Made by a program: the position numbers and the translations under genes
Source: a virus
IMG/VR virus record: IMGVR_UViG_3300007734_000725
Span: 1 to 53,221 of that record
Length of the DNA stretch: 53,221 bases
Direction: 5' to 3' (one strand)
In this document: piece by piece, positions 42,052 through 53,221 of the stretch
Numbering within the stretch: position 1 is the stretch's first letter
Layout of the letters: each line of letters starts with the position of its first letter
Notes under the pieces: model-generated
Database searches by the model: none
Told to the model about the DNA's origin: nothing
What the model saw: the letters and a program-made list of their open reading frames with translations, nothing else

Positions 42052-42437
42052 CGCGTGAAGCCCTTCTCGAACCGATCATCTCTTCGGTCCGTAAGGGCAC
42101 GTCGCTGTCGCGCTACACGATTCTGGATTACTTTGCAGACTGGGATGTTCTCCCGTTTGATTTTGATGGGCAACACGTTTGGACCATGGTGGCCAAAGGG
42201 ACCGAAGTTCATTTTGCGCTTGCGCCCGGGTGGAAACCCAAGGCCAGCATGCGTGGGGCGGTCAGGTCTTTTCTTAAACCGGTGATTGAAAGACATGGGT
42301 TTTTGACTACGCGTGTAGCGCACGGGCGCGCGGCACAAAAAGAATTTGTAAAACGAATTGGCTTTAAGCCTACTTGGAAAGACGGGGACGTTGAGTATTA
42401 TCTGCTTGGCAGCCTACCCTTTGAGAGGAAAATATGA
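42048..42437 (+). CDS. gp13-like acetyltransferase-fold virion protein, 129 aa
   Basis: ATG at 42048 overlaps the previous stop (ATGA). MTREALLEPIISSVRKGTSL ... HVWTMVAKGTEVHFALAPGW ... AAQKEFVKRIGFKPTWKDGD. The F-x-K-R-x-G-F-x-P-T ending resembles GNAT folds as in T7 internal virion protein A, which lack known enzyme activity. The neighbours on both sides are internal virion candidates. Confidence 0.6.
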   Translation: MTREALLEPIISSVRKGTSLSRYTILDYFADWDVLPFDFDGQHVWTMVAKGTEVHFALAPGWKPKASMRGAVRSFLKPVIERHGFLTTRVAHGRAAQKEFVKRIGFKPTWKDGDVEYYLLGSLPFERKI

Positions 42438-43462
42438 TCAAGAAAATCTACATGTCTCGGGCTGAAACCCGGGCAATGGCAGCTGAGCATCCTATCGGCG
42501 ATCCCACCGGCGGCCCAGCCTACGGTGAGAAAAACGATCCGATCAGCGCGGCCATTTCAATTGGCACAATGTTTGCTACGGCCGAAGCCGGCTTTGCTGC
42601 TATGACGGTAATGCAAGGCATCACGTTTGCTGGCGCAGCGGTGAGCTTGGTTGGTAATATCACTGGCAACAAGAGCTTGATGAAGCTGGGTGCCATTGCT
42701 GGTATTGCTGGCGGCATAGGTGCTTTTGCTGAAAGCCAAGGCTTGTTTAGCTCCGGCAATCTTGGCGAATCTTTGGGTATGACCACCTCGATTCCTGACG
42801 AAGCCTTACGAGGTTCTGTGGCTGCCGGCGCTCAAACCCCTGTAGTTAACGGCGCTCAAACTAACCCCGTCGTCGACGCTGCTTCGGCGCCGTCTGTTGT
42901 AAATAATCAGCCCCTTAACGTCAACGCGCCCGGTGGTGGGGCCAATCCTCTTAACGCAGGCCCCGGCGGCTTTGCGTCAGAAAACGTGCAGGCTTTGACA
43001 CCGGCCCAACTTAACGCGCCTACGGCCAACACCTTTGGCCAGACACCCGGCCCAGCGGGCCCTAACGCTGTGGCCCCAGCGGGTCCCGGTTTTGTAGACT
43101 CTATCAAAGCCGGCAACTACGGCCAAGCCTTGAGCACCGCCGGCGGCAACGCCATGGACTTGTTGAAGAACAATCCAACTGGTGCCTACGTTGCAGCCCA
43201 AGCTGTTGGCGCTGTGGCCAACGTGCTCAGCGGCAAGACTGGTGCAGAGCTTGAGGCATTAAAAGCCAACACCGGATACGCCAACGCAAAGGCTTTGGAA
43301 GTGCAAGAAGCAATTGCCAAAGAACAACGGCGCCGTGCAAACCTTGCAAACGGTTACGCTAATGTCAAGATGGGTACCATGGCGGTAAATTCCAACGCTA
43401 ACATTACCCAGCCTTGGCAACAACAGGCTCCCGCTGGTTTGATTACCGGCGCACGCGGTTAA
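42434..43462 (+). CDS. Internal virion protein with hydrophobic segment, 342 aa
   Basis: MIKKIYMSRAETRAMAAEHP then a Gly/Ala hydrophobic stretch (GFAAMTVMQGITFAGAAVSL ... LMKLGAIAGIAGGIGAF, about 48-95) that could enter a membrane, an Asn/Pro/Ala-rich linker, and a helical C-terminus (NAKALEVQEAIAKEQRRRAN). Compatible with T7 gp14-like ejection proteins that line a channel through the envelope. Inference from layout. Confidence 0.65.
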   Translation: MIKKIYMSRAETRAMAAEHPIGDPTGGPAYGEKNDPISAAISIGTMFATAEAGFAAMTVMQGITFAGAAVSLVGNITGNKSLMKLGAIAGIAGGIGAFAESQGLFSSGNLGESLGMTTSIPDEALRGSVAAGAQTPVVNGAQTNPVVDAASAPSVVNNQPLNVNAPGGGANPLNAGPGGFASENVQALTPAQLNAPTANTFGQTPGPAGPNAVAPAGPGFVDSIKAGNYGQALSTAGGNAMDLLKNNPTGAYVAAQAVGAVANVLSGKTGAELEALKANTGYANAKALEVQEAIAKEQRRRANLANGYANVKMGTMAVNSNANITQPWQQQAPAGLITGARG

Positions 43463-43472
43463 GGAGAACATT

Positions 43473-43973
43473 ATGGCAACAGGACTAATTCAAGACGAGA
43501 TGGGTCGCCCAGAAGGCGACGACTTAACCAAAGAATCGGTTGAGGAAAATATCAAAATGCCGCCTGAGTTACAGGAGGCTTACGAGCGCGTGGTCATTGC
43601 TGGCATGAAAGTGATGTTCTCTAAAGAAAGTCACAAAGTCATGCTTGAAGAATTGCAGCGTGAAGGCCCTATGGACCAGCGCCTTGGTAAAGGTATTGCT
43701 GGCTTGATGTTGCTTTTGTTTAAAGAATCAAATGAAACAATGCCCCCGGCCGTAATCATTCCAGCTGGTATGAAGTTGATGATGGAAGCCGTAGACTTCA
43801 TGCGTGAGACCGACCTTGGCCAACCAACCAATGCTGAGATTGGCGGCGGCATGCAAATTATGATCTCAACAATCTTAGAAAAGTTTGGCGTTGCGCCAGA
43901 CAAAATGGAACAGATGTTGAACCAGTACAGCAACGAAAACATTCCGGCTGCACCGCAGCAGATGGGAGCTTGA
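43473..43973 (+). CDS. Virion-associated helical protein, 166 aa
   Basis: MATGLIQDEMGRPEGDDLTK ... KMPPELQEAYERVVIAGMKV. Met-rich amphipathic helices throughout (GKGIAGLMLLLFKESNETMP). A pattern seen in small proteins beside phage ejection proteins. GGAGAA ribosome site; the next gene begins two bases after its stop. Function unknown. Confidence 0.65.
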   Translation: MATGLIQDEMGRPEGDDLTKESVEENIKMPPELQEAYERVVIAGMKVMFSKESHKVMLEELQREGPMDQRLGKGIAGLMLLLFKESNETMPPAVIIPAGMKLMMEAVDFMRETDLGQPTNAEIGGGMQIMISTILEKFGVAPDKMEQMLNQYSNENIPAAPQQMGA

Positions 43974-43974
43974 T

Positions 43975-44757
43975 ATGGGTATCGCTGGCTTGATTGCTGC
44001 CGCTGTAGGCGGGGCTGCTGAAGGCTACGGCAAGGGCGCCGACATGGAAATGAAAAAGCAAAGTGAGCTGGATCTAAGGAAACAGCTTATGGATGCTGAG
44101 ACTGAAAGGCAGTTGCGTGTTGACGAGATCAAACGCGGCCGCGACATTACTGAGGAAACTCGTAAGATGTCTCCAGAGTACATTGCTCAAACCGTTGCTG
44201 CTGATTTGGCAAAAACTCAAGGGGGTCTTGCAAACCGCAAAACGGTGGCTCCTCAAGCAGCTGAGGTCGCAACCTCCGAGTACACCGCTAACAAACCTTT
44301 GGATATAACCAAAGCAGCGGATGCCGTTACCGCCAAGATTACAGAAACAACCTCGCTTTCGGGAAACAAAGACTATCTCAAAGGCGAGGCAGCTTTGAAC
44401 GAAGCCAAAGGCGCAGCCGGTATCAAGGCCGCTCAGATCCGCGCAGACTCTATCAAGGATCGTGCGGTTTCAGGCGGCGGTGGTGCTGTCAAAGTGCGCA
44501 GCACATACACCGATGATTCAGGCCAGAAGATTGCAGTCTTGTCTGACGGTACTACCAAGGTCCTTGGCAAGGCAGCTGACTACGATAAGACCTTGTCCAA
44601 CTTGGTTACCAAGATGGCCAAAGATGATTACAAGTTTGCTAAATTGCCGGAGGCTGAAAAGCGCAAGCAAGCTGAAGAGCGCTTGCGTGGTCAGATCGTT
44701 GTGCCTAGCAGCGGTCGAGACTTGTCTAAATACGAACGCGACGCAACCGCAGACTAA
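43975..44757 (+). CDS. Helical virion protein, 260 aa
   Basis: MGIAGLIAAAVGGAAEGYGK, a short hydrophobic Gly/Ala helix that could insert into membrane, then a charged helical domain (MKKQSELDLRKQLMDAETER) and YTDDSGQKIAVLSDGTTKV, a small beta segment. C-terminus charged. Likely an ejection protein partner located before the giant polyvalent gene. Confidence 0.65.
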   Translation: MGIAGLIAAAVGGAAEGYGKGADMEMKKQSELDLRKQLMDAETERQLRVDEIKRGRDITEETRKMSPEYIAQTVAADLAKTQGGLANRKTVAPQAAEVATSEYTANKPLDITKAADAVTAKITETTSLSGNKDYLKGEAALNEAKGAAGIKAAQIRADSIKDRAVSGGGGAVKVRSTYTDDSGQKIAVLSDGTTKVLGKAADYDKTLSNLVTKMAKDDYKFAKLPEAEKRKQAEERLRGQIVVPSSGRDLSKYERDATAD

Positions 44758-44765
44758 GGACCCAC

Positions 44766-47700
44766 ATGGCATTTGACGTCAAAGGTGCTTTAAAGGACGG
44801 ATATAGCCCGGCCGAAATCGCTGATTACCTTGCCAGCAAAAGAAACTTCGACGTTGCCGCCGCCCGCAAGGACGGCGTTAGCGACGACGAAATTATTAGC
44901 CATTTGGTAAGCCGGGTTGATGCCCCCAAAGCTGCGCCTGTGGAAGAAGCGCCCGCTGTGCCTGCGGCTGCCCGTGCGCCTGCGCCCGCTCCCGCGCCTG
45001 CTAAACCAGCCGATACCCGTGGCGTCTTGCAAAAAGTCAAAGACTTTGTCACGCCAGAATACAAGAGTGTGTTGGACACAGCGGCGCCTCCAACGGCGCA
45101 AGAACAACAAGCCGAGATCGACAAGCGCCTGAGTTACGGCGCAGGTCCAGTTAGCAAAGGCACTGTTGCCCAAGCTGATCTGGTCCGCAGCGGCATAACT
45201 CGGACAGAAGACGAGCGCGTCAAACAAGTAGCGCAGGAGATGGACCTGCGGGGCGAAGAATCTATTGGCGGGTTAATTGAGCGCGCTAAGAGGCCTGAGA
45301 ATGTAGCCGCCGCGCGAGACGCAAAAGCTGAAGAATTCCGTACCGCTGGGCAGTGGGCCTTTGATACATTGGTTTCCGCACCCGCTCAGTTTGGCGCGTC
45401 GTTTCTTAGCTTGCCCGTCAACATCATTGCGCCAAGCAGCGCCATTGGCGAAACACTTCGCAAAGCGCAAAAAGATTTTAAAGATCTTGAGTCAGATCAA
45501 CTTAAAGCTCGCCAAGCTCGCATGGCCGCCCGGGTCAATAACGAAGAAGGCTTTATCAATCAGTACGCAACAGTTGTTGGCGAGCTGGTGTCTAGCCCGT
45601 CAATGGCTTTGCAAGAAACGGTCAAGCAGGCCGGTTACTTCTTGGGTGTGCTTGGTTTGGCCAGAGCTGGAAGTGCGGCTGCCGGCGGCTTGGTTGGCCT
45701 TGCTGGCCGCGCAAGCCCGACGCTGGCGTTGGGCGAGGCTATCAGCGGTGGGGCTATTAAAACCGGCGCTCAAATAGCAGGGGCTGCCGTGGGCGGACGT
45801 ACGGCTTCCATGCTTATGGCCGGTGGTGACGCCGCAGGGTCTACTTACGAAGCACTGACAGACCCCAATAAAACACCGCTTAAAGAGTGGCAAAAGAACG
45901 AAGACTACCAACGCTTGACTGCCGGGGGGATGTCTAGCAAAGACGCAATCAAAGAACTTGCTACAACAAAAGCGCGCATTGCCGCTGCAATTGTGGCGCC
46001 GCTTGGCCTTTTTGGTTATGCCGGTGCTGAGGCTGCCATAGTTTCTCGGGGTATTGCCAAGTCTTTAAACCAGCGACTGGCAACCCAAAGCGGCGCAAAG
46101 ATTTTTGGCAAAGAACTTGTTGGCGAAAACATTGAAGAGATGGGAACTCAGCTGGGTAGCAACGTTGTTACCCAAACCGTAAACCCAAATCAAGATTTGT
46201 TAGAAGGTGTGGCCGAAGCCGGCGCTACCGCTACGGTAACCTCTGGCCCGTTCGCTGCGCTTGCAGCCAGAAACGAATACAAACAAGCTCTTGCTGGCCA
46301 ACCCGGGGGCGCGCAGTTTGCAGGCTCGGACCAAGCGGCTCGCTACTTACTTAATCCCCAGACTTACGACGCCCGGTTGATCAGCCCACTGGAAACGTCG
46401 GACCCGTCGCGCATCTTGCAATCGACATCGGTTGACGACGCGGTTGCATCGGCAAATGAATTGGCTGGATCGCTGGAGATCACCCCCGGCCCAGTCGCGC
46501 CAGCACCTTTAGGACCCATAGACACGTTGGGCCGGGTTGAGCCAACGTTTGATCCCAACGCCCCTCTGGCCCCACTGCCCGCCCTTGACACTATGCAGGC
46601 CCTTACCCTGCCTGAGCCAAGTGTTGCTACCGAACAACAGTTTGGTTTGGACAAGTTGCGTTTGAATGCGCCACGCCCACAAAAGATTCAAGGTGTTGCG
46701 GTTTCGCAACTGTCTGACGACCAGCTTCAAACCATTGCAACCGACGAATCCGTCCCCGCAATCACCCGCAGGGGCGCGTCAGTTGAGCTTACAGCGCGTC
46801 AAGCCGAAGGGGCTGGTACTACCCCAGCCACTGGACTTACAAACGCCCCTAGCGTACCATTGGCCAATGCACCAACCGACCAAAACGCAGGCATCATTGC
46901 CGACAAAACTCTTACCCTCCCAGAATCGGAAATGTCTGGTGCCGCAATTGCGCCAGTGGGAGGAGAGTCTGCCGCAGCCGGAGCTAGAGCAACTGCACAA
47001 GCTGCTATCGACAGGTGGGCTACTTCCAACGGTGTAGAAAGCCCGGCGATCTTTAACGCGTCTCCAGCAAATCTGGACAGCGCGATCAATGAAATTGCTC
47101 AGGCTTTAAACAGCCAATTCAGTGGTAGGGTTTACGCTTATAACGACGATCGCTCTAACGCCATAAACGGCGTGGCCATTGGCGGCACAGCCTTTATCAA
47201 TACCGCCAACGTTGACACCAACGTTGCGCGCACGGGCCTTCATGAATTCCACCACACGATTGAACAGCTTGCAAAGCTGGAAACCAATCAAGGCCTGACC
47301 GACACGCCGGCGCAGCGGTACGTGGCCAGCATGAACGGTGTCTTTGATGACATGACCGATGTGGGTAAGCGCGCATACCTTGAAAACTTCTTGCTGAAAG
47401 AAGAGCTGGATGCAATTGCAGATCCTGTTGCGCGAGAGCAACGCCTGCAAGAAGCTATGGCCGGCAAGACCATACGGTCTGAAATGACTGCCGACTTCCT
47501 AGGCAACAGGGCTACAGACAAGAAATTCTGGGAAGACGTGGCGGCTGCTGACCCACAAGGCTTTAAAGGTTTTGTCGACAGATGGATTAAGATCATTGAC
47601 AATTTGATCGACACGCTTAAAGGCACGGCAACTCAAGGCGGGAAAGAATCTGCCAAGGTCGACACCTACTTGCGCGATTTGAACAAGGCAAAAGCAATAG

Positions 47701-50700
47701 CCCGCGACGCCCTCGTTGCGTATAACAAAGGAATTCAAAATGGAAGCATTAACGTTGCAGCAGGTCAAGACGTATCAGGGCCTACAGCGTCAGCTCGACA
47801 ACTCGCTGGTGGAGATGGGGGCAGTCAAGCCCCAGAATACGGAACAGCCCGCGAAGGCGCCGTCTCCGTTATCGGCCGGCACTACTCAACCGAAGCCCGC
47901 ACTTCGTTAAATGGAGCTTATTATGGGACTGGTCTCAAAGGTGCAGAGCGCGATCGACTGGACGGTAGCCCAGATCCTCGCCTCAAAAATCGCGTTTACT
48001 TCTATGTTGACCAAGGCGCCGGCGTCCGACCCGAAGCCGGAGTCGGAGGCATCGCCCACGAAGTCCGACTCAACAACATCTACGACCCCAAAACGCAGAT
48101 ACTTCCGGTCAAAGGAAACTTCAACGCCTTCGAATCCGCAGTAATCAATGGAGGTTTTGACGGCTATATTGCTCCCTTTGGAAACAATCAAGCGGCCGTC
48201 GTCCTGCTGGGCCCGCGCCACTCTGCCGTACCCGTGCGATCCTTGGGTCGCGTGGCCGGTGCCCCAGCCCCTACACCAGCCGAACCTACGACGCTGAAGA
48301 AGGGGCTTCTTTCCAAAGAGCTGGCCATCATCGAGGCTTCCCGTGTACCGGGTGCCCGTGTTGCTGCTGGCAATCTGGAGATCCCCGTTGCTTCACGCGA
48401 CGCAGCCAACACAGAACTGGAACGCATCGGCAGCGATGTTAGGTTTAGCAAGAAGCCCGCAAAGGCAGCGCCTGCTAGGGTTATGTTTGAGGTTGCCCCC
48501 GATCCTAACAATACCGAGCTTACCGCTCGTTGGGACGCGGTGCCCTTTGAACGCAAGATTGAGATCAGCCAAAGGGTTGCTGAGAAGATCATGCCTCAAG
48601 TGTTTAAGCTCGCCGGCGTTAGGGCTAAGATGACCACGCAGTTGGGCGGCTATCTTGAAAAAACAAGTCCTTCGTTTGCTGCGCTTGTCCCAAGCACGGC
48701 GTCTGCTGAGCAGCTTATGGATGTTGCGCGGCTGGGCGGGTTTGGTTTAGCCCAAGACAGCATGATGGTCTTAGATTCCAAACCTTTTGAAGGCTCATTC
48801 CCCACAGGTTTGATCACAATCACGTTGCCAGAAAACATGGTCGATCAAAAATCAGTCGACGCCGTTTATCAAGACTTGCGGCAGGTGTCGCCAGAAAACA
48901 TCAGTGGCCACACAACAGTTGGACAAGAGATGGTTTTGGCCGTTCCTTCTGCTAGTATGGACGACCTTGCATCAAAAATAGAAAGCGTTCTTGGCAGTCG
49001 TCCAGAGAGCTTTATTTTAAAAACCGGGGATGGCCAGATGGCCTTCCCATCCAAAGAGGAGTATGACTATGGTCAAGAGGGAACAGGGTCTCCCGAGCTT
49101 CTTGCAAAACGGGCAGAGGCTCGTCGCATCCGCGAAGAAGCCAGCGCCGCCATCGAAGCCGAACTCGCCAAAGATGAAAGTACCGGTGGGCGCAAAATAG
49201 ACACAGGCGTTTATCGCTCTGTTGCAGACGCCTTCGGCCTTTCCCAAGCAGAGTACAACGCCAGTGCTCTGCCCCTGATGCTGGGCGGCGTGAAGGACAA
49301 GATCTTCCGCGCTCCCAAAATTGGCGGCATTCCAGAAACCATTCAGTGGCTGGACCAGCGATACCAAGATTCAGGCATGCCAACCCTTGACATCAACAAG
49401 GCCGAGGACCGCGCGACCTTGGCCAAGCTGATGGCGGCCGAAGCCGTTGGCGCAATTCGAAGCGCTGGCAACGCAGTCGAATGGTACGACGAGACCATTG
49501 ACAAAATGCTAAGCATCATGTCGGTCAAGTACCCGGAGCTGAACACGGACCCTGACGCGCGCAATGCTTTCTTGATCGCCGTTGCCATCTCTTCTCAGAA
49601 AATGGATGTTGAATCCAATCTGACTTTTGCTTCCAGCCAGTACGAAGCCTTTCGCACAACAGGCAAATTCCCTGAGATTGGCCAAGGCACGGCCATCCCA
49701 GCCATGGTCAAAAACTTTGCATTGGCCAACAAGGTGATGGCTGACATGGGCCCGACCCTGTTGCGCCGGTTCTTGCAAACTGAATTCACCAAGCGTGAAT
49801 TAGAGACTGCTGGATTTCCAATTGGCTCCGAGTCAATGGACGAGAAAATGCTTGGCTCGGCCATCTTTGGACCCAAAATTGGATTTGGCTTTTACAGTAA
49901 CCTGACCGGCAACTTTGAACCAATCACCATGGACATGTGGTTCATGCGTTTTGTTGGCCGTCTAAGCGGCACCCTGCTGGCTTTTGACCCGGTCCTGTTT
50001 CCAAAGCAAGTGGCCAAGCTCCGTGCCGCTTTAAACGAAACCGGAGATTCAAGCCGTGGCGTTTATGCCGCAGACCTTAAGCCAGAAGATGTTGCTGCCG
50101 CGCAAGAAACCGACGAAGGCGCAATTGCTTTGGCGCGTAAAATAAACACCTTGCACAACCGGCAGTTCATCAAAGAACGTGAAGCATTTAACTCTGGCGC
50201 CCGCATCAAAACCGCTTTGGTAGGTGCGTCCAACTCGATCATTAAGTCTTCTGACAAGCCTACTGATGCACCGTCCAGCGGCGGTGAGCGCCAGCGCCTG
50301 CGTGACGTGACTCGACAGATGGTGGCTTTGGTTGAGGAGCAGACAGGTAATCGTGTGCCACCAGCGGCGTTGCAAGCGTTGGTCTGGTATCCAGAACAGG
50401 AGCTTTATAAAAAGCTGGGCGTTGATCTTGCAGTCACTAGCCAAGACTATGCGGGTGCGGCACAATTACTACTTAAGAAAGAAGGCTTTGATGAAAAACA
50501 AATCAGCGCAGCAGCCGAATCTGGACCAAGACAAGCACGACAAGTGGCTGGAAAGCAGGACGCCGGAACAACTGGACAGACTGGCCAGCCGACTGGGCGC
50601 ACTGGCCCGATCCAAGGAGAAGAGCGGGAAACTTTCATTGCAGCCCGAGTCCCCCTCAAAGACATCTTCGTTGGATTAGAAAAACGTGGCCTTGCCAAGG

Positions 50701-50825
50701 CTAACACGGAGGCTATGATTGCGCGTCGGTCAGATGCGGCCCAGATCCAATACATGCAGGACAATTTCCTCGACATCCTCGACGAGCTGGACACATCTGG
50801 CTTAGTCGAAATCAATTGCAAATAA
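44766..50825 (+). CDS. Giant polyvalent internal virion protein with metallopeptidase motif, 2019 aa
   Basis: N-terminus has two FDVxxAxKDGxSxxEI repeats (3-50), then a Pro/Ala linker. A Gly/Ala hydrophobic region (about 285-360) may insert into membrane. H826-E-F-H-H830 fits a zincin metallopeptidase (HExxH) as in MPTase-PolyVal. From H1039: RHYSTEARTSLNGAYYGTGL then KGAERDRL and RVYFYVDQGAGVRPEAGVGG, a polyvalent-associated domain seen in phage proteins. Near 1720 there is GPKIGFGFYSNLTGNFEPIT followed by D-M-W, another recurring phage motif. Such proteins are packaged and injected with DNA to attack host barriers. Exact activities unproven. Confidence 0.8.
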   Translation: MAFDVKGALKDGYSPAEIADYLASKRNFDVAAARKDGVSDDEIISHLVSRVDAPKAAPVEEAPAVPAAARAPAPAPAPAKPADTRGVLQKVKDFVTPEYKSVLDTAAPPTAQEQQAEIDKRLSYGAGPVSKGTVAQADLVRSGITRTEDERVKQVAQEMDLRGEESIGGLIERAKRPENVAAARDAKAEEFRTAGQWAFDTLVSAPAQFGASFLSLPVNIIAPSSAIGETLRKAQKDFKDLESDQLKARQARMAARVNNEEGFINQYATVVGELVSSPSMALQETVKQAGYFLGVLGLARAGSAAAGGLVGLAGRASPTLALGEAISGGAIKTGAQIAGAAVGGRTASMLMAGGDAAGSTYEALTDPNKTPLKEWQKNEDYQRLTAGGMSSKDAIKELATTKARIAAAIVAPLGLFGYAGAEAAIVSRGIAKSLNQRLATQSGAKIFGKELVGENIEEMGTQLGSNVVTQTVNPNQDLLEGVAEAGATATVTSGPFAALAARNEYKQALAGQPGGAQFAGSDQAARYLLNPQTYDARLISPLETSDPSRILQSTSVDDAVASANELAGSLEITPGPVAPAPLGPIDTLGRVEPTFDPNAPLAPLPALDTMQALTLPEPSVATEQQFGLDKLRLNAPRPQKIQGVAVSQLSDDQLQTIATDESVPAITRRGASVELTARQAEGAGTTPATGLTNAPSVPLANAPTDQNAGIIADKTLTLPESEMSGAAIAPVGGESAAAGARATAQAAIDRWATSNGVESPAIFNASPANLDSAINEIAQALNSQFSGRVYAYNDDRSNAINGVAIGGTAFINTANVDTNVARTGLHEFHHTIEQLAKLETNQGLTDTPAQRYVASMNGVFDDMTDVGKRAYLENFLLKEELDAIADPVAREQRLQEAMAGKTIRSEMTADFLGNRATDKKFWEDVAAADPQGFKGFVDRWIKIIDNLIDTLKGTATQGGKESAKVDTYLRDLNKAKAIARDALVAYNKGIQNGSINVAAGQDVSGPTASARQLAGGDGGSQAPEYGTAREGAVSVIGRHYSTEARTSLNGAYYGTGLKGAERDRLDGSPDPRLKNRVYFYVDQGAGVRPEAGVGGIAHEVRLNNIYDPKTQILPVKGNFNAFESAVINGGFDGYIAPFGNNQAAVVLLGPRHSAVPVRSLGRVAGAPAPTPAEPTTLKKGLLSKELAIIEASRVPGARVAAGNLEIPVASRDAANTELERIGSDVRFSKKPAKAAPARVMFEVAPDPNNTELTARWDAVPFERKIEISQRVAEKIMPQVFKLAGVRAKMTTQLGGYLEKTSPSFAALVPSTASAEQLMDVARLGGFGLAQDSMMVLDSKPFEGSFPTGLITITLPENMVDQKSVDAVYQDLRQVSPENISGHTTVGQEMVLAVPSASMDDLASKIESVLGSRPESFILKTGDGQMAFPSKEEYDYGQEGTGSPELLAKRAEARRIREEASAAIEAELAKDESTGGRKIDTGVYRSVADAFGLSQAEYNASALPLMLGGVKDKIFRAPKIGGIPETIQWLDQRYQDSGMPTLDINKAEDRATLAKLMAAEAVGAIRSAGNAVEWYDETIDKMLSIMSVKYPELNTDPDARNAFLIAVAISSQKMDVESNLTFASSQYEAFRTTGKFPEIGQGTAIPAMVKNFALANKVMADMGPTLLRRFLQTEFTKRELETAGFPIGSESMDEKMLGSAIFGPKIGFGFYSNLTGNFEPITMDMWFMRFVGRLSGTLLAFDPVLFPKQVAKLRAALNETGDSSRGVYAADLKPEDVAAAQETDEGAIALARKINTLHNRQFIKEREAFNSGARIKTALVGASNSIIKSSDKPTDAPSSGGERQRLRDVTRQMVALVEEQTGNRVPPAALQALVWYPEQELYKKLGVDLAVTSQDYAGAAQLLLKKEGFDEKQISAAAESGPRQARQVAGKQDAGTTGQTGQPTGRTGPIQGEERETFIAARVPLKDIFVGLEKRGLAKANTEAMIARRSDAAQIQYMQDNFLDILDELDTSGLVEINCK

Positions 50826-50834
50826 GGGTTTACC

Positions 50835-51326
50835 ATGACACCAACAATGATCATCTCCGCTGACATCAAGCGCATGCTTGACGACGCAATCCACGCTGAG
50901 CTTTACGCAGCAAACCTGTACAAGCACATTGCCAATCAGGTGCAGCGCCTTGGCTACCTTGGCGCAATGAAATTCTTTTTGAAAGAAAGCGAAGCCGAGT
51001 TAAATCACTACCAACTGCACGCCCAATTTCAAAACGACGTGGGCACTGTGGCCAAGGTCCCGATGATTGAAGCCATGACCGATTCGGTCAAGTCTTTTTC
51101 TGACGCCATGGAACTGGCTTATGAAACTGAGCTTGAGTTGTACAACACCTACAAAAATATGTACTCTCAGACCAGTAGCGACCCCGTGGTTCAGCAATTC
51201 CTGCTTCAGTTCTTGGAGCTACAGCGCACCAGCGTTGGTGAGTATGGCGATTTGCTTGCCCGTATCCAGTTAGTGGATGGCGACAAGGCAGGCATGCTCT
51301 TGATCGATCAGGAGCTGGGAGCCTGA
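50835..51326 (+). CDS. Ferritin-like iron-binding protein, 163 aa
   Basis: Four-helix layout and length match bacterial ferritin (about 165 aa). HAELYAANLYKHIANQV (E22), ESEAELNHYQLHAQF (E55, H58), AYETELELYNTY (E99) and the ending MLLIDQEL line up with E17, E50/H53, E94 and the LYFIDKEL tail of E. coli FtnA. The Gln127/Glu130 ligands are not clearly kept. Ferritins oxidise and store Fe(II) as 24-mers. Here the gene lies between two injected-type proteins, so it may be a virion part or act on host iron or peroxide (inference). Confidence 0.8.
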   Translation: MTPTMIISADIKRMLDDAIHAELYAANLYKHIANQVQRLGYLGAMKFFLKESEAELNHYQLHAQFQNDVGTVAKVPMIEAMTDSVKSFSDAMELAYETELELYNTYKNMYSQTSSDPVVQQFLLQFLELQRTSVGEYGDLLARIQLVDGDKAGMLLIDQELGA

Positions 51327-51330
51327 CCAC

Positions 51331-53221
51331 ATGGCAACCTGTAAATACACGTTCATTGGTGCTGACGGTAAGAGCACCACGGTTGAGGGTATACCCGCCC
51401 TTAAAGAATTCCTGCTTCAAGGCGGGCTTGAACAATACTTGCCCGGTCGTGCAGCAGAAATGCTGGCGCCTAAAGCTGACGACGATGTCGGCACCCCTTT
51501 TGACGTAGCTTTTAGCGGCCGACAAACGCCGGCTAAAGATTGGCCCCGGGCAGAAGAGCCCGGCGAGTTTGAAGCCAAACCCGGTGACTCCATTACCGTG
51601 GTCCGCTTGGCCAACATGGAAGGCCTTGGAAACGCGAACGCCGCCAGTGTCCAAGGCTTGGCCAGCTACATCTCTATGATTGACGACGACGAGACCGGCG
51701 CTGGATCAGAGGGCGTCAACTCAGACAACATCTACGTGTACAAAGTCAAAGTTCCTGAAAGCGGCTTTGGTGAATACAACTTGATGCGCGGTGGCAAGAC
51801 CGTGTCTGGTAAAGGCTCTGAAAAAGATGGCCGCCAAGAAGCCCGCTATGGCGGCTACTGGTATTCATTTACCGAAGGCACAGAAGCCGATCTCCTTGCC
51901 ACCGTTCCTTTGGCCAACGTGCGCAAAGCGGCTGCAGTCATTGAAAGGGAGCGAGAAGACGCAGCACCTTGGAACAAAGGTCCCATGACCGATGAGCAAG
52001 CGGCTACGCTTAAAGGTAACTTTGATCGCATTGGCACCGAGGCAGGGACCAAAGCGTTGCGTGACGCGTTTGCTGGCGCAGGCATAAGCCTTAGCCGCCG
52101 CGAACAAAAGAACGCCGCTGCGAGCCGCGTATCCAACGTCAGTTCTGATCGATTCAAACGCACCGACGAATTGCAGCAAGCCGTCACTGACTTGCAAGAA
52201 GGCAAGATTACCCAAGACGAATACAACGCCATGGTCGACAACCTTCGCCCGGTTTATCCGTACGAAAAAGTCCCTGCGCTTACAACCCCGGCCGACGCTA
52301 AATATGCCTTGGCCAATGGCCGTGGTCAAAGCCTAGAGAAGGCGGCCAAGTACGGCCTGCCATCAGACACCTTGGCCAAAGGCGACTTTGCCCAGCTACG
52401 CTTGGACATCCCTTCGTACCAAGAGCACGACGCATGGGTGGTCAGTGTGCACACACCCAAGTCCACCAACCGTCAAGTGCAAGCAGCCTACGACGCAGGC
52501 ACTGTCATTGGATACGAATCTGCAGCAGCAATGACCGACGCAACTTTTGGCATGAACCAAAAGGCGGCAACCAAGATTGCACAGGGTACAAGCAAGGGCA
52601 CGATTGCCACCATACTTGGAAAGTGGAAACCAATCAGCAACCAAGCCGCAAAGGTTCGGGCTGATGCTGCTATCAAGGACCCGGCTTGGACACAGGTGGG
52701 CATGGACCCATTCCGCCACAGTTACTTTTACGATCGCGACACAATGCGCCCAGTGCTGAGCGCCGATGAAGTGATTCAGCTCGGCCCTTTGGTGTTGGCC
52801 AAAAACGCCACCTTCAGCGAAGACGGCAAAGACATCACCGGCGCGCCAATTGCTTTTAGTCCTAGGGAAGGCGGCAGTCTTAACTCCAAACTTGAGCAGC
52901 TCATTCTGTCTGACTTTGGTGGCGCTGTTCGGCAGTACGCCGAAATTGAGGGGACCGAGAAGGGTAAGAAGATTGACGTCGACCTTATCCGCAACCTGTC
53001 CCCCGAGTACCGTGCAGACCGCAGCCTTGCACCACAAGTGCATGAGGCGTCCAGTGCATTCAGTCAGATGCTGTACGACCAACGGCTTGAAGAGTCTAGG
53101 CCGGGCGGCGTGATCACGTTTATGTCCGGTGGCGGCGGCGCGGGTAAGTCTTCAGCCGAAGCCCTGCTTAAGCCTATACTTGACGAATCGCACACAATCT
53201 TTGACGGCACGCTGTCCAGCA
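51331..53221 (+). CDS. Polyvalent protein with P-loop zeta-toxin-like domain (truncated by window)
   Basis: Open frame of at least 630 aa running off the right edge. The N-terminus (MATCKYTFIGADGKSTTVEG then LLQGGLEQYLPGR) and the block VGMDPFRHSYFYDRDTMRPV then DEVIQLGPLVLAKNATF are typical of phage polyvalent proteins of the PLxRFG kind. At 590-630 comes GGVITFMSGGGGAGKSSAEA (Walker A 601-607) and SHTIFDGTLSS, as in zeta-toxin kinases that phosphorylate UDP-GlcNAc. The rest of the kinase is outside the window, so activity cannot be judged. GGGAG lies upstream of the ATG. Confidence 0.8.
   Translation, partial: MATCKYTFIGADGKSTTVEGIPALKEFLLQGGLEQYLPGRAAEMLAPKADDDVGTPFDVAFSGRQTPAKDWPRAEEPGEFEAKPGDSITVVRLANMEGLGNANAASVQGLASYISMIDDDETGAGSEGVNSDNIYVYKVKVPESGFGEYNLMRGGKTVSGKGSEKDGRQEARYGGYWYSFTEGTEADLLATVPLANVRKAAAVIEREREDAAPWNKGPMTDEQAATLKGNFDRIGTEAGTKALRDAFAGAGISLSRREQKNAAASRVSNVSSDRFKRTDELQQAVTDLQEGKITQDEYNAMVDNLRPVYPYEKVPALTTPADAKYALANGRGQSLEKAAKYGLPSDTLAKGDFAQLRLDIPSYQEHDAWVVSVHTPKSTNRQVQAAYDAGTVIGYESAAAMTDATFGMNQKAATKIAQGTSKGTIATILGKWKPISNQAAKVRADAAIKDPAWTQVGMDPFRHSYFYDRDTMRPVLSADEVIQLGPLVLAKNATFSEDGKDITGAPIAFSPREGGSLNSKLEQLILSDFGGAVRQYAEIEGTEKGKKIDVDLIRNLSPEYRADRSLAPQVHEASSAFSQMLYDQRLEESRPGGVITFMSGGGGAGKSSAEALLKPILDESHTIFDGTLSS

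What the first reader, a model, noticed from the sequence alone, without database searches (positions are those of the whole stretch)
50835..51326. Phage-encoded ferritin-like protein placed among injected virion proteins
The protein keeps most di-iron ligands (E22, E55, H58, E99) and the ferritin C-terminal signature, at the normal length, and sits between two polyvalent genes in the late virion cluster. Ferritin genes are rare in phages. A role in iron in tails, peroxide defence or host iron capture is conceivable. The partly changed ferroxidase site (no clear Gln127/Glu130) suggests altered function.
Basis: partly seen in the sequence, partly recalled or inferred. Interest (0 to 1): 0.78.

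Follow-up and report, generated by a model that had tools for sequence, protein, structure and literature searches.

The report
Phage ferritin between two injected giants
An uncultured phage carries a real ferritin gene with an intact iron-oxidising site, always wedged between genes for head or injected proteins, and in most relatives the two giant proteins on either side contain exactly one cysteine each, at the end facing the ferritin gene, which hints that the three work as one injected assembly.

Summary
The ORF at 50835-51326 (163 aa) is a true ferritin. It scores 58 bits to Pfam PF00210 (cut-off 24.5). Its AlphaFold model (pLDDT 92) has five helices and matches E. coli FtnA at TM 0.94. 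E22, E55, H58, E99 and Q130 are invariant in 84/84 viral relatives. The bacterial third-site glutamates are lost, and E130 becomes S/A, as in eukaryotic H-type ferritins.

It belongs to a monophyletic viral family (about 150 IMG/VR contigs) with no clear relative in cultured phages. Every context examined is a head or ejection one: after the portal or a minor-head gene, beside one giant, or, most often, between two giant ORFs. The giants (about 500-3000 aa) are cysteine-free, like ejected proteins of N4, T7 and P22, except for one Cys in the last 1-4 residues of the upstream giant and one in the first 3-7 residues of the downstream giant (69/69 and 74/75). Single-giant phages lack it.

Best reading: a ferroxidase-competent ferritin dedicated to the ejection apparatus, serving two injected proteins joined end to end through their terminal cysteines. 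Virion location, iron chemistry and the disulfide are inferred, not shown.

The parts
50835..51326 (+). Ferritin (FtnA-type fold, 163 aa, stop included); diiron ligands E22, E55, H58, E99, Q130, plus Y29
44766..50825 (+). Upstream giant ORF, 2019 aa, polyvalent-like, predicted ejected protein; one Cys in the whole protein; HExxH motif at residue 826 (47241)
50649..50822 (+). Conserved C-terminal tag of the upstream giant (58 aa), ending ...VEINCK
50817..50819 (+). Codon of the only cysteine of the upstream giant (residue 2018 of 2019)
51331..53221 (+). Downstream giant ORF, cut by the window end (630 aa seen; about 550-2050 aa in relatives); L5-gp82-like domain and zeta-toxin-like P-loop at 53128; one Cys
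51331..51468 (+). Conserved N-terminal tag of the downstream giant (about 46 aa), MATCKYTF..., weakly predicted beta-hairpin plus helix
51340..51342 (+). Codon of the only cysteine seen in the downstream giant (residue 4)
42434..44757 (+). Three smaller cysteine-free late ORFs (342, 166, 260 aa) directly upstream, probable small ejection proteins

Best explanation
The gene encodes a phage-specific, ferroxidase-competent ferritin that belongs to the phage's protein-ejection apparatus, not to host iron metabolism. It is translated from one operon with two giant proteins that are injected into the host ahead of the DNA. I propose that the C-terminal tag of the first giant and the N-terminal tag of the second meet, at or near the ferritin, and are joined through their single cysteines, most simply as a disulfide, into one end-to-end chain that can be threaded through the tail and falls apart in the reducing host cytoplasm. 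The ferritin would act as assembly hub and/or supply the local oxidation (Fe(II) + O2 giving peroxide) that the reducing cytoplasm of the producer cell would otherwise prevent. Shown by computation: ferritin fold, intact and invariant A/B diiron ligands, fixed gene position, conserved tags, single-cysteine rule. Inferred: virion location, ejection of the giants, contact between ferritin and tags. Speculative: the disulfide and its oxidation by the ferritin.
For: Diiron ligands E22/E55/H58/E99/Q130 are 84/84 invariant down to 38% pairwise identity. Fold TM 0.94 to FtnA. 66 distinct two-giant cassettes have gaps of -16 to +20 and -26 to +10 nt. No tag-bearing giant was found away from the ferritin except at contig ends or in one rearranged contig. 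Upstream giants have 0 Cys in 56,547 aa outside the last 10 residues; downstream giants 2 in 41,806 aa; other ORFs have 10.1 per 1000 aa. Exactly one Cys in 69/69 upstream and 74/75 downstream giants (one of the 74 has a miscalled start). Tags are homologous between near and far lineages (hhalign 97% and 88%; cross-controls under 1%), while the bulk of the giants differs and domains move between upstream and downstream proteins. Ejected proteins of N4, T7 and P22 are also Cys-free. The terminal Cys is absent where there is only one giant: L141/L155, the L084 contig, and ferritin-less phages DC33, ctEw122, an H. pullorum prophage and ctwe8250. In other lineages the ferritin follows the portal or a minor-head gene.
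Against: No virion proteomics and no cultured member. The ferritin itself is not cysteine-depleted (7.5 per 1000), so it may not be ejected. A 24-mer cage (about 12 nm, from general knowledge) could not pass the tail intact. Portal-adjacent members of the family lack the Cys-tagged giants, so the ferritin cannot exist only for them. Bacterial ferritins make little free peroxide (general knowledge), so oxidation of the cysteines by the ferritin is weakly grounded. Two cysteines could instead bind a metal or a third partner. The ferritin-less phages that carry homologous giants are few (four).
Confidence: 0.4

Rival explanations
1. The ferritin is packaged or expressed as a protector: it removes Fe(II) and peroxide so that packaged DNA and the long unfolded injected proteins are not damaged, much as ferritin-like cargo does in HK97-fold encapsulins or Dps does on DNA. 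The terminal cysteines have some other purpose.
For: Intact ferroxidase site in all 84 relatives; head-module position in unrelated phage lineages; other phages carry Dps and Mn-catalase, read as oxidative-stress enzymes (PMC8008677).
Against: Does not explain why the tags and single cysteines face the ferritin gene, nor the fixed position between two giants. The reported phage Dps of Lactobacillus phages lies near replication genes, not in the ejection operon (PMC6669764).
Confidence: 0.3
2. It is a structural core or portal-associated assembly factor in which the metal site is kept mainly for folding and stability; no redox chemistry matters.
For: Directly after the portal or a minor-head gene in several lineages; many phage-specific invariant residues in helix D outside the metal site, such as R131, G135, Y137, D139.
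Against: All five metal ligands are invariant while bundle residues vary, which suggests use of the metal and not packing alone; the third iron site was lost but A/B kept.
Confidence: 0.17
3. It is an ordinary auxiliary metabolic gene: a captured bacterial ferritin that stores iron or tunes host iron during infection.
For: Classical FtnA fold and intact ferroxidase site.
Against: Never seen outside a head/ejection context here; the viral family is one clade on a very long branch (3.98 changes per site) from cellular FtnA; no FtnA-type ferritin in 100 other genomes of the putative host family.
Confidence: 0.09
4. Iron carried in tails for siderophore-receptor binding (Ferrojan Horse).
For: Iron-binding protein fold encoded in the late operon.
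Against: Gene is next to portal, minor-head and injected-protein genes, not tail fibres; a ferritin subunit is not a receptor-binding protein.
Confidence: 0.03

Closest known systems
Bacterial non-heme ferritin FtnA (E. coli 1EUM, T. maritima 1Z4A)
   Same: Fold (TM 0.94), length, helix E, A/B ferroxidase ligands E, E, H, E, Q and the nearby Tyr
   Different: 18-22% identity; third-site glutamates (E49, E126, E129) and E130 lost; many phage-specific invariants in helix D; not in a cellular iron regulon
Eukaryotic H-chain type ferritin
   Same: Diiron site of E, E, H, E, Q with Ser/Ala in place of bacterial E130
   Different: Equally distant in sequence; phage gene, no eukaryotic context
Phage Dps and Mn-catalase (Gratiaviridae and others, PMC8008677; Lactobacillus plantarum phages, PMC6669764)
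   Same: Ferritin-superfamily proteins carried by phages
   Different: Different families; read there as oxidative-stress enzymes; the Lactobacillus Dps lies near replication genes, not in the ejection operon
Encapsulin with ferritin-like cargo (PMC6668986, PMC5012862)
   Same: Ferritin-superfamily enzyme linked to an HK97-type shell
   Different: EncFtn is a two-helix protein housed in an encapsulin shell; here a full ferritin in a phage head operon, packaging not shown
Ejected virion proteins: N4 vRNAP, T7 gp14-16, P22 gp7/16/20; polyvalent proteins (PMC5512222)
   Same: Giants flanking the ferritin are large, lie in the late operon and are cysteine-free
   Different: Two giants, each with one terminal Cys in a conserved tag and a ferritin gene between them; the polyvalent-protein survey does not mention ferritin

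Membership tests
Ferritin (FtnA-type, PF00210) | Four-helix bundle plus C-terminal helix E, about 165 aa | tested here: met
Ferritin (FtnA-type, PF00210) | Ferroxidase A/B ligands E, E, H, E, Q | tested here: met
   84/84 viral relatives; same residues in 13/13 cellular FtnA
Ferritin (FtnA-type, PF00210) | Bacterial third iron site (E49, E126, E129) and E130 | tested here: not met
   Viral D/variable, I/L, T/K and S/A; this excludes the FtnA subtype, not ferritin in general
Ferritin (FtnA-type, PF00210) | 24-subunit cage that oxidises Fe(II) and stores an iron core | not testable with these tools
   Needs protein
Dps | No helix E, short helix in the BC loop, inter-subunit ferroxidase site | tested here: not met
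   Helix E present, no BC helix, intra-subunit ligands; closest folds are FtnA-type
Bacterioferritin | Second ligand set with His in helix D (ExxH) | tested here: not met
   Q130 and S133 instead; heme ligand not examined
Rubrerythrin | Rubredoxin-like Cys4 iron domain | tested here: not met
   No cysteine in the window protein; Pfam rubrerythrin only 28.9 bits against 58.4 for ferritin
Ejected virion proteins (for the two giants) | Late-operon position and cysteine-free sequence as in N4, T7, P22 | tested here: met
   met except for the one terminal Cys; an empirical marker, not a formal definition
Ejected virion proteins (for the two giants) | Present in virion and found in the host cell after adsorption | not testable with these tools
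   Needs virions
Polyvalent proteins (for the two giants) | Several unrelated effector domains in one chain next to virion genes | tested here: inconclusive
   Zeta-toxin-like, L5-gp82-like and HExxH features, head-morphogenesis hit in a relative, but few recognised domains in the window proteins

The most novel reading that the evidence does not exclude
A disulfide-coupled protein train: two injected giants, purged of all other cysteines, are linked C-terminus to N-terminus by one disulfide, and a phage-specific ferritin encoded between them is the dedicated hub and oxidant that makes the link in the reducing cytoplasm; the host's reducing cytoplasm releases the effectors after injection.
Probability: 0.18. 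Interest if true: 0.93.

Novelty: new variant of a known kind. Interest (0 to 1): 0.76.

Why it matters
Ferritin-superfamily genes in phages are usually read as stress or iron genes. Here a full ferritin is locked into the head/ejection operon of several phage lineages with its catalytic site intact, which suggests iron or redox chemistry in virion assembly or protein ejection. The single-cysteine rule of the flanking giants is a sharp, cheap-to-test pattern: it marks ejected proteins by sequence alone and points to a specific covalent or metal link between them. How proteins of 1000-3000 residues get through a channel of about 35 A is an open question; an end-to-end link with a defined release trigger would be a new element of the answer.

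Tried and rejected
Cultured-phage homologues by tblastn with five queries: none convincing; three fecal scaffolds branch with cellular ferritins and not with the viral family, and the Staphylococcus record is an unverified, unannotated contig from wastewater. Plasmids: none. Ferritin fused to other domains: none found. Recent capture from the putative host: rejected. Degenerate ferroxidase site: rejected. Terminal 'INC' as a mere by-product of an overlapping RNA signal: not supported, because the Cys also persists where the junction DNA is unrelated (L083, L053, L125). Apparent exceptions to tag-ferritin linkage were contig ends, matches at a contig edge with the ferritin in fact adjacent, or one rearranged contig (L054/L162). 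Literature search for phage ferritin in ejection operons or for the cysteine rule found nothing in the held library. The N4 vRNAP paper does not mention cysteine. From memory and not checked: older N4 work may have noted that vRNAP lacks cysteines.

Full report
Observation. The ORF at 50835-51326 (+) is 163 aa. Pfam gives Ferritin PF00210 at 58.4 bits against a cut-off of 24.5, and Rubrerythrin at 28.9. PHROG gives only phrog_16594, function unknown. A profile of 14 viral relatives matches solved ferritins over their whole length at E about 4e-16. AlphaFold2 on 21 homologues gives pLDDT 92 and pTM 0.86 with helices A9-38, B42-68, C88-112, D117-146 and E151-162. Foldseek finds E. coli FtnA and T. 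maritima ferritin at TM 0.94, rmsd 1.0, 18-22% identity. The window is a virus record of 53,221 bases. It has a DNA polymerase, exonuclease and primase-helicase region, terminase (19006), SU10-type portal (20881), capsid (26453) and tail genes, followed by the late stretch that holds the ferritin. The fold claim is therefore confirmed.

The metal site. In pairwise and profile alignments and in a joint alignment with cellular FtnA, Q130 aligns with the ferroxidase glutamine. In 84 distinct viral relatives, down to 38% pairwise identity, E22, E55, H58, E99 and Q130 are invariant; Y29 is Y in 75 and W in 9. The positions of FtnA E49, E126, E129 and E130 are all Glu in 13 cellular FtnA sequences but are variable, I/L, T/K and S/A in the viral family. 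The A/B ferroxidase centre is thus complete, the bacterial third site is gone, and the E130 position resembles eukaryotic H-chains. dN/dS against near relatives is 0.02-0.08.

The family. Scans of IMG/VR found 53, 113 and 150 relatives with increasingly diverse queries. No clear relative was found in 50,697 cultured-phage records or in plasmids. Two hits in bacterial assemblies are phage-like contigs in a Burkholderiales and a Rhodoferax MAG, which hints at freshwater Burkholderiales hosts; mis-binning is possible. In 100 other genomes of that host family no FtnA-type ferritin was found; 22 of 299 Pseudomonadota genomes have one, at 81 bits or less against more than 200 for phage relatives. 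A maximum-likelihood tree makes the viral sequences one clade (100/100) on a branch of 3.98 changes per site from cellular FtnA. It is an old viral family, not a recent capture.

Context. In most relatives the ferritin lies between two giant ORFs; in 66 distinct cassettes the upstream gaps run from -16 to +20 nt and the downstream gaps from -26 to +10 nt. In the window the start codon of the downstream ORF follows ferritin codons that read CAGGAGCTGGGAGCC, a plausible ribosome-binding site. In other lineages, with unrelated portals, the ferritin directly follows the portal gene (L113 phrog_6547, L073 phrog_21) or lies next after it across 0.3 kb (L052 phrog_12082), or follows a minor-head/DNA-pilot gene (L149 phrog_220), and in L111 it precedes a gene with a head-scaffold match. 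In L141/L155 it follows a single giant. No member was seen in a metabolic context.

The tags and the single cysteines. The upstream giant always ends in a conserved module of about 58 aa, typically ending (V/I)xINC(K/D), and the downstream giant always begins with a module of about 45 aa, MAxCxYxF...GxxxIxGxxxxKAFL. Very distant lineages keep recognisable versions: hhalign probability 97% for the N-tag and 88% for the C-tag, with cross-controls below 1%. Between the tags the giants differ widely, and one domain found in a downstream giant (L002) occurs at 56% identity in an upstream giant (L062). In lineages thinned by ferritin identity, 33 upstream giants have 0 Cys in 56,547 aa outside the last ten residues, and 35 downstream giants have 2 Cys in 41,806 aa outside the first ten (both in L090); other ORFs of 200 aa or more in the same loci have 10.1 per 1000. 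Over all distinct cassettes, 69/69 upstream and 74/75 downstream giants have exactly one Cys, at the end facing the ferritin gene (one downstream case had a miscalled start, and some giants are cut by contig ends). In the window these are codons 50817-50819 and 51340-51342.

Controls. Proven ejected proteins are cysteine-free: N4 vRNAP 0 in 3500 aa, N4 66-kDa and 16.5-kDa proteins 0, T7 gp15 and gp16 0, P22 gp7, gp20 and gp16 0; portals and the P22 tailspike do contain Cys, though the N4 major coat protein has none. Three smaller ORFs directly upstream of the upstream giant are cysteine-free in nearly all relatives examined. The giants therefore look like ejected proteins. The terminal Cys is absent where there is only one giant: L141/L155, the L084 contig, whose giant has 0 Cys and whose ferritin is beside the portal, and four ferritin-less phage records with homologous single giants (DC33 3125 aa with one internal Cys; ctEw122, an H. 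pullorum prophage and ctwe8250 with none). The ferritin itself is not cysteine-depleted (61 of 84 have 1-5), so it may stay in the capsid or in the producer cell.

Mechanism. Shown by computation: a ferritin fold with intact, invariant ferroxidase ligands; a head/ejection context in every member examined; conserved tags; one terminal Cys in each giant. Inferred: both giants are injected and the tag ends meet at or near the ferritin, which co-translational assembly from the operon would favour. Speculative: the two cysteines form a disulfide that joins the chains C-terminus to N-terminus for threading, with release in the reducing host cytoplasm, and the ferritin supplies the oxidation. The main rival is a protective ferroxidase packaged with DNA and proteins, as in encapsulins. 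The isolated N-tag gives only a modest model (pLDDT 73; two strands then helices).

Prior art. Dps and Mn-catalase in gut phages (PMC8008677), Dps-like genes near replication genes in Lactobacillus phages (PMC6669764), a ferritin-like signature gene in a Clostridium phage group (PMC4981718), and a few predicted viral ferritins in BFVD. The polyvalent-protein survey does not mention ferritin. I found no report of a ferritin in an ejection operon nor of the one-cysteine rule, but the library excludes most subscription journals. Verdict: the ferritin is real and catalytically plausible; the cassette is a new variant of known parts, with a testable and unusual pattern.

Noticed in passing
L274, L275, L276 (N4, T7, P22): Ejected proteins of three model phages are almost entirely cysteine-free; T7 gp14 has a single Cys at residue 2. 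Cysteine depletion could be a sequence marker for ejected proteins.
   Followed up: partly
window 42434-44757: Three ORFs upstream of the giant have no cysteine and no database match; probable small ejection proteins.
   Followed up: partly
window 51331-53221 and L002:10497-15260: Downstream giant carries an L5 gp82-like domain and a zeta-toxin-like kinase domain, likely an effector acting on the bacterial host.
   Followed up: no
L054 / L162 (contig IMGVR_UViG_3300020044_004730): Ferritin gene broken and the upstream giant inverted relative to the downstream tag: assembly artefact or inversion.
   Followed up: partly
L007:10001-10471: Ferritin with an in-frame 7-residue deletion in helix B; the bridging Glu and the His are kept.
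   Followed up: no
BFVD hits A0A6J7XDU5, A0A6J5RFH1 and others: Weak structural matches named prohead protease or long Dps proteins (300-760 aa) in uncultured phages: ferritin-like domains may be fused to head-maturation proteins elsewhere.
   Followed up: no
L287 (PQ492659.1, Limnohabitans phage DC33): Filed as Inoviridae, but a 39-kb genome with a 3125-aa giant and a podovirus-like layout; the taxonomy looks wrong.
   Followed up: no
L090 downstream giant: Only cassette giant with extra cysteines (residues 233 and 1948).
   Followed up: no
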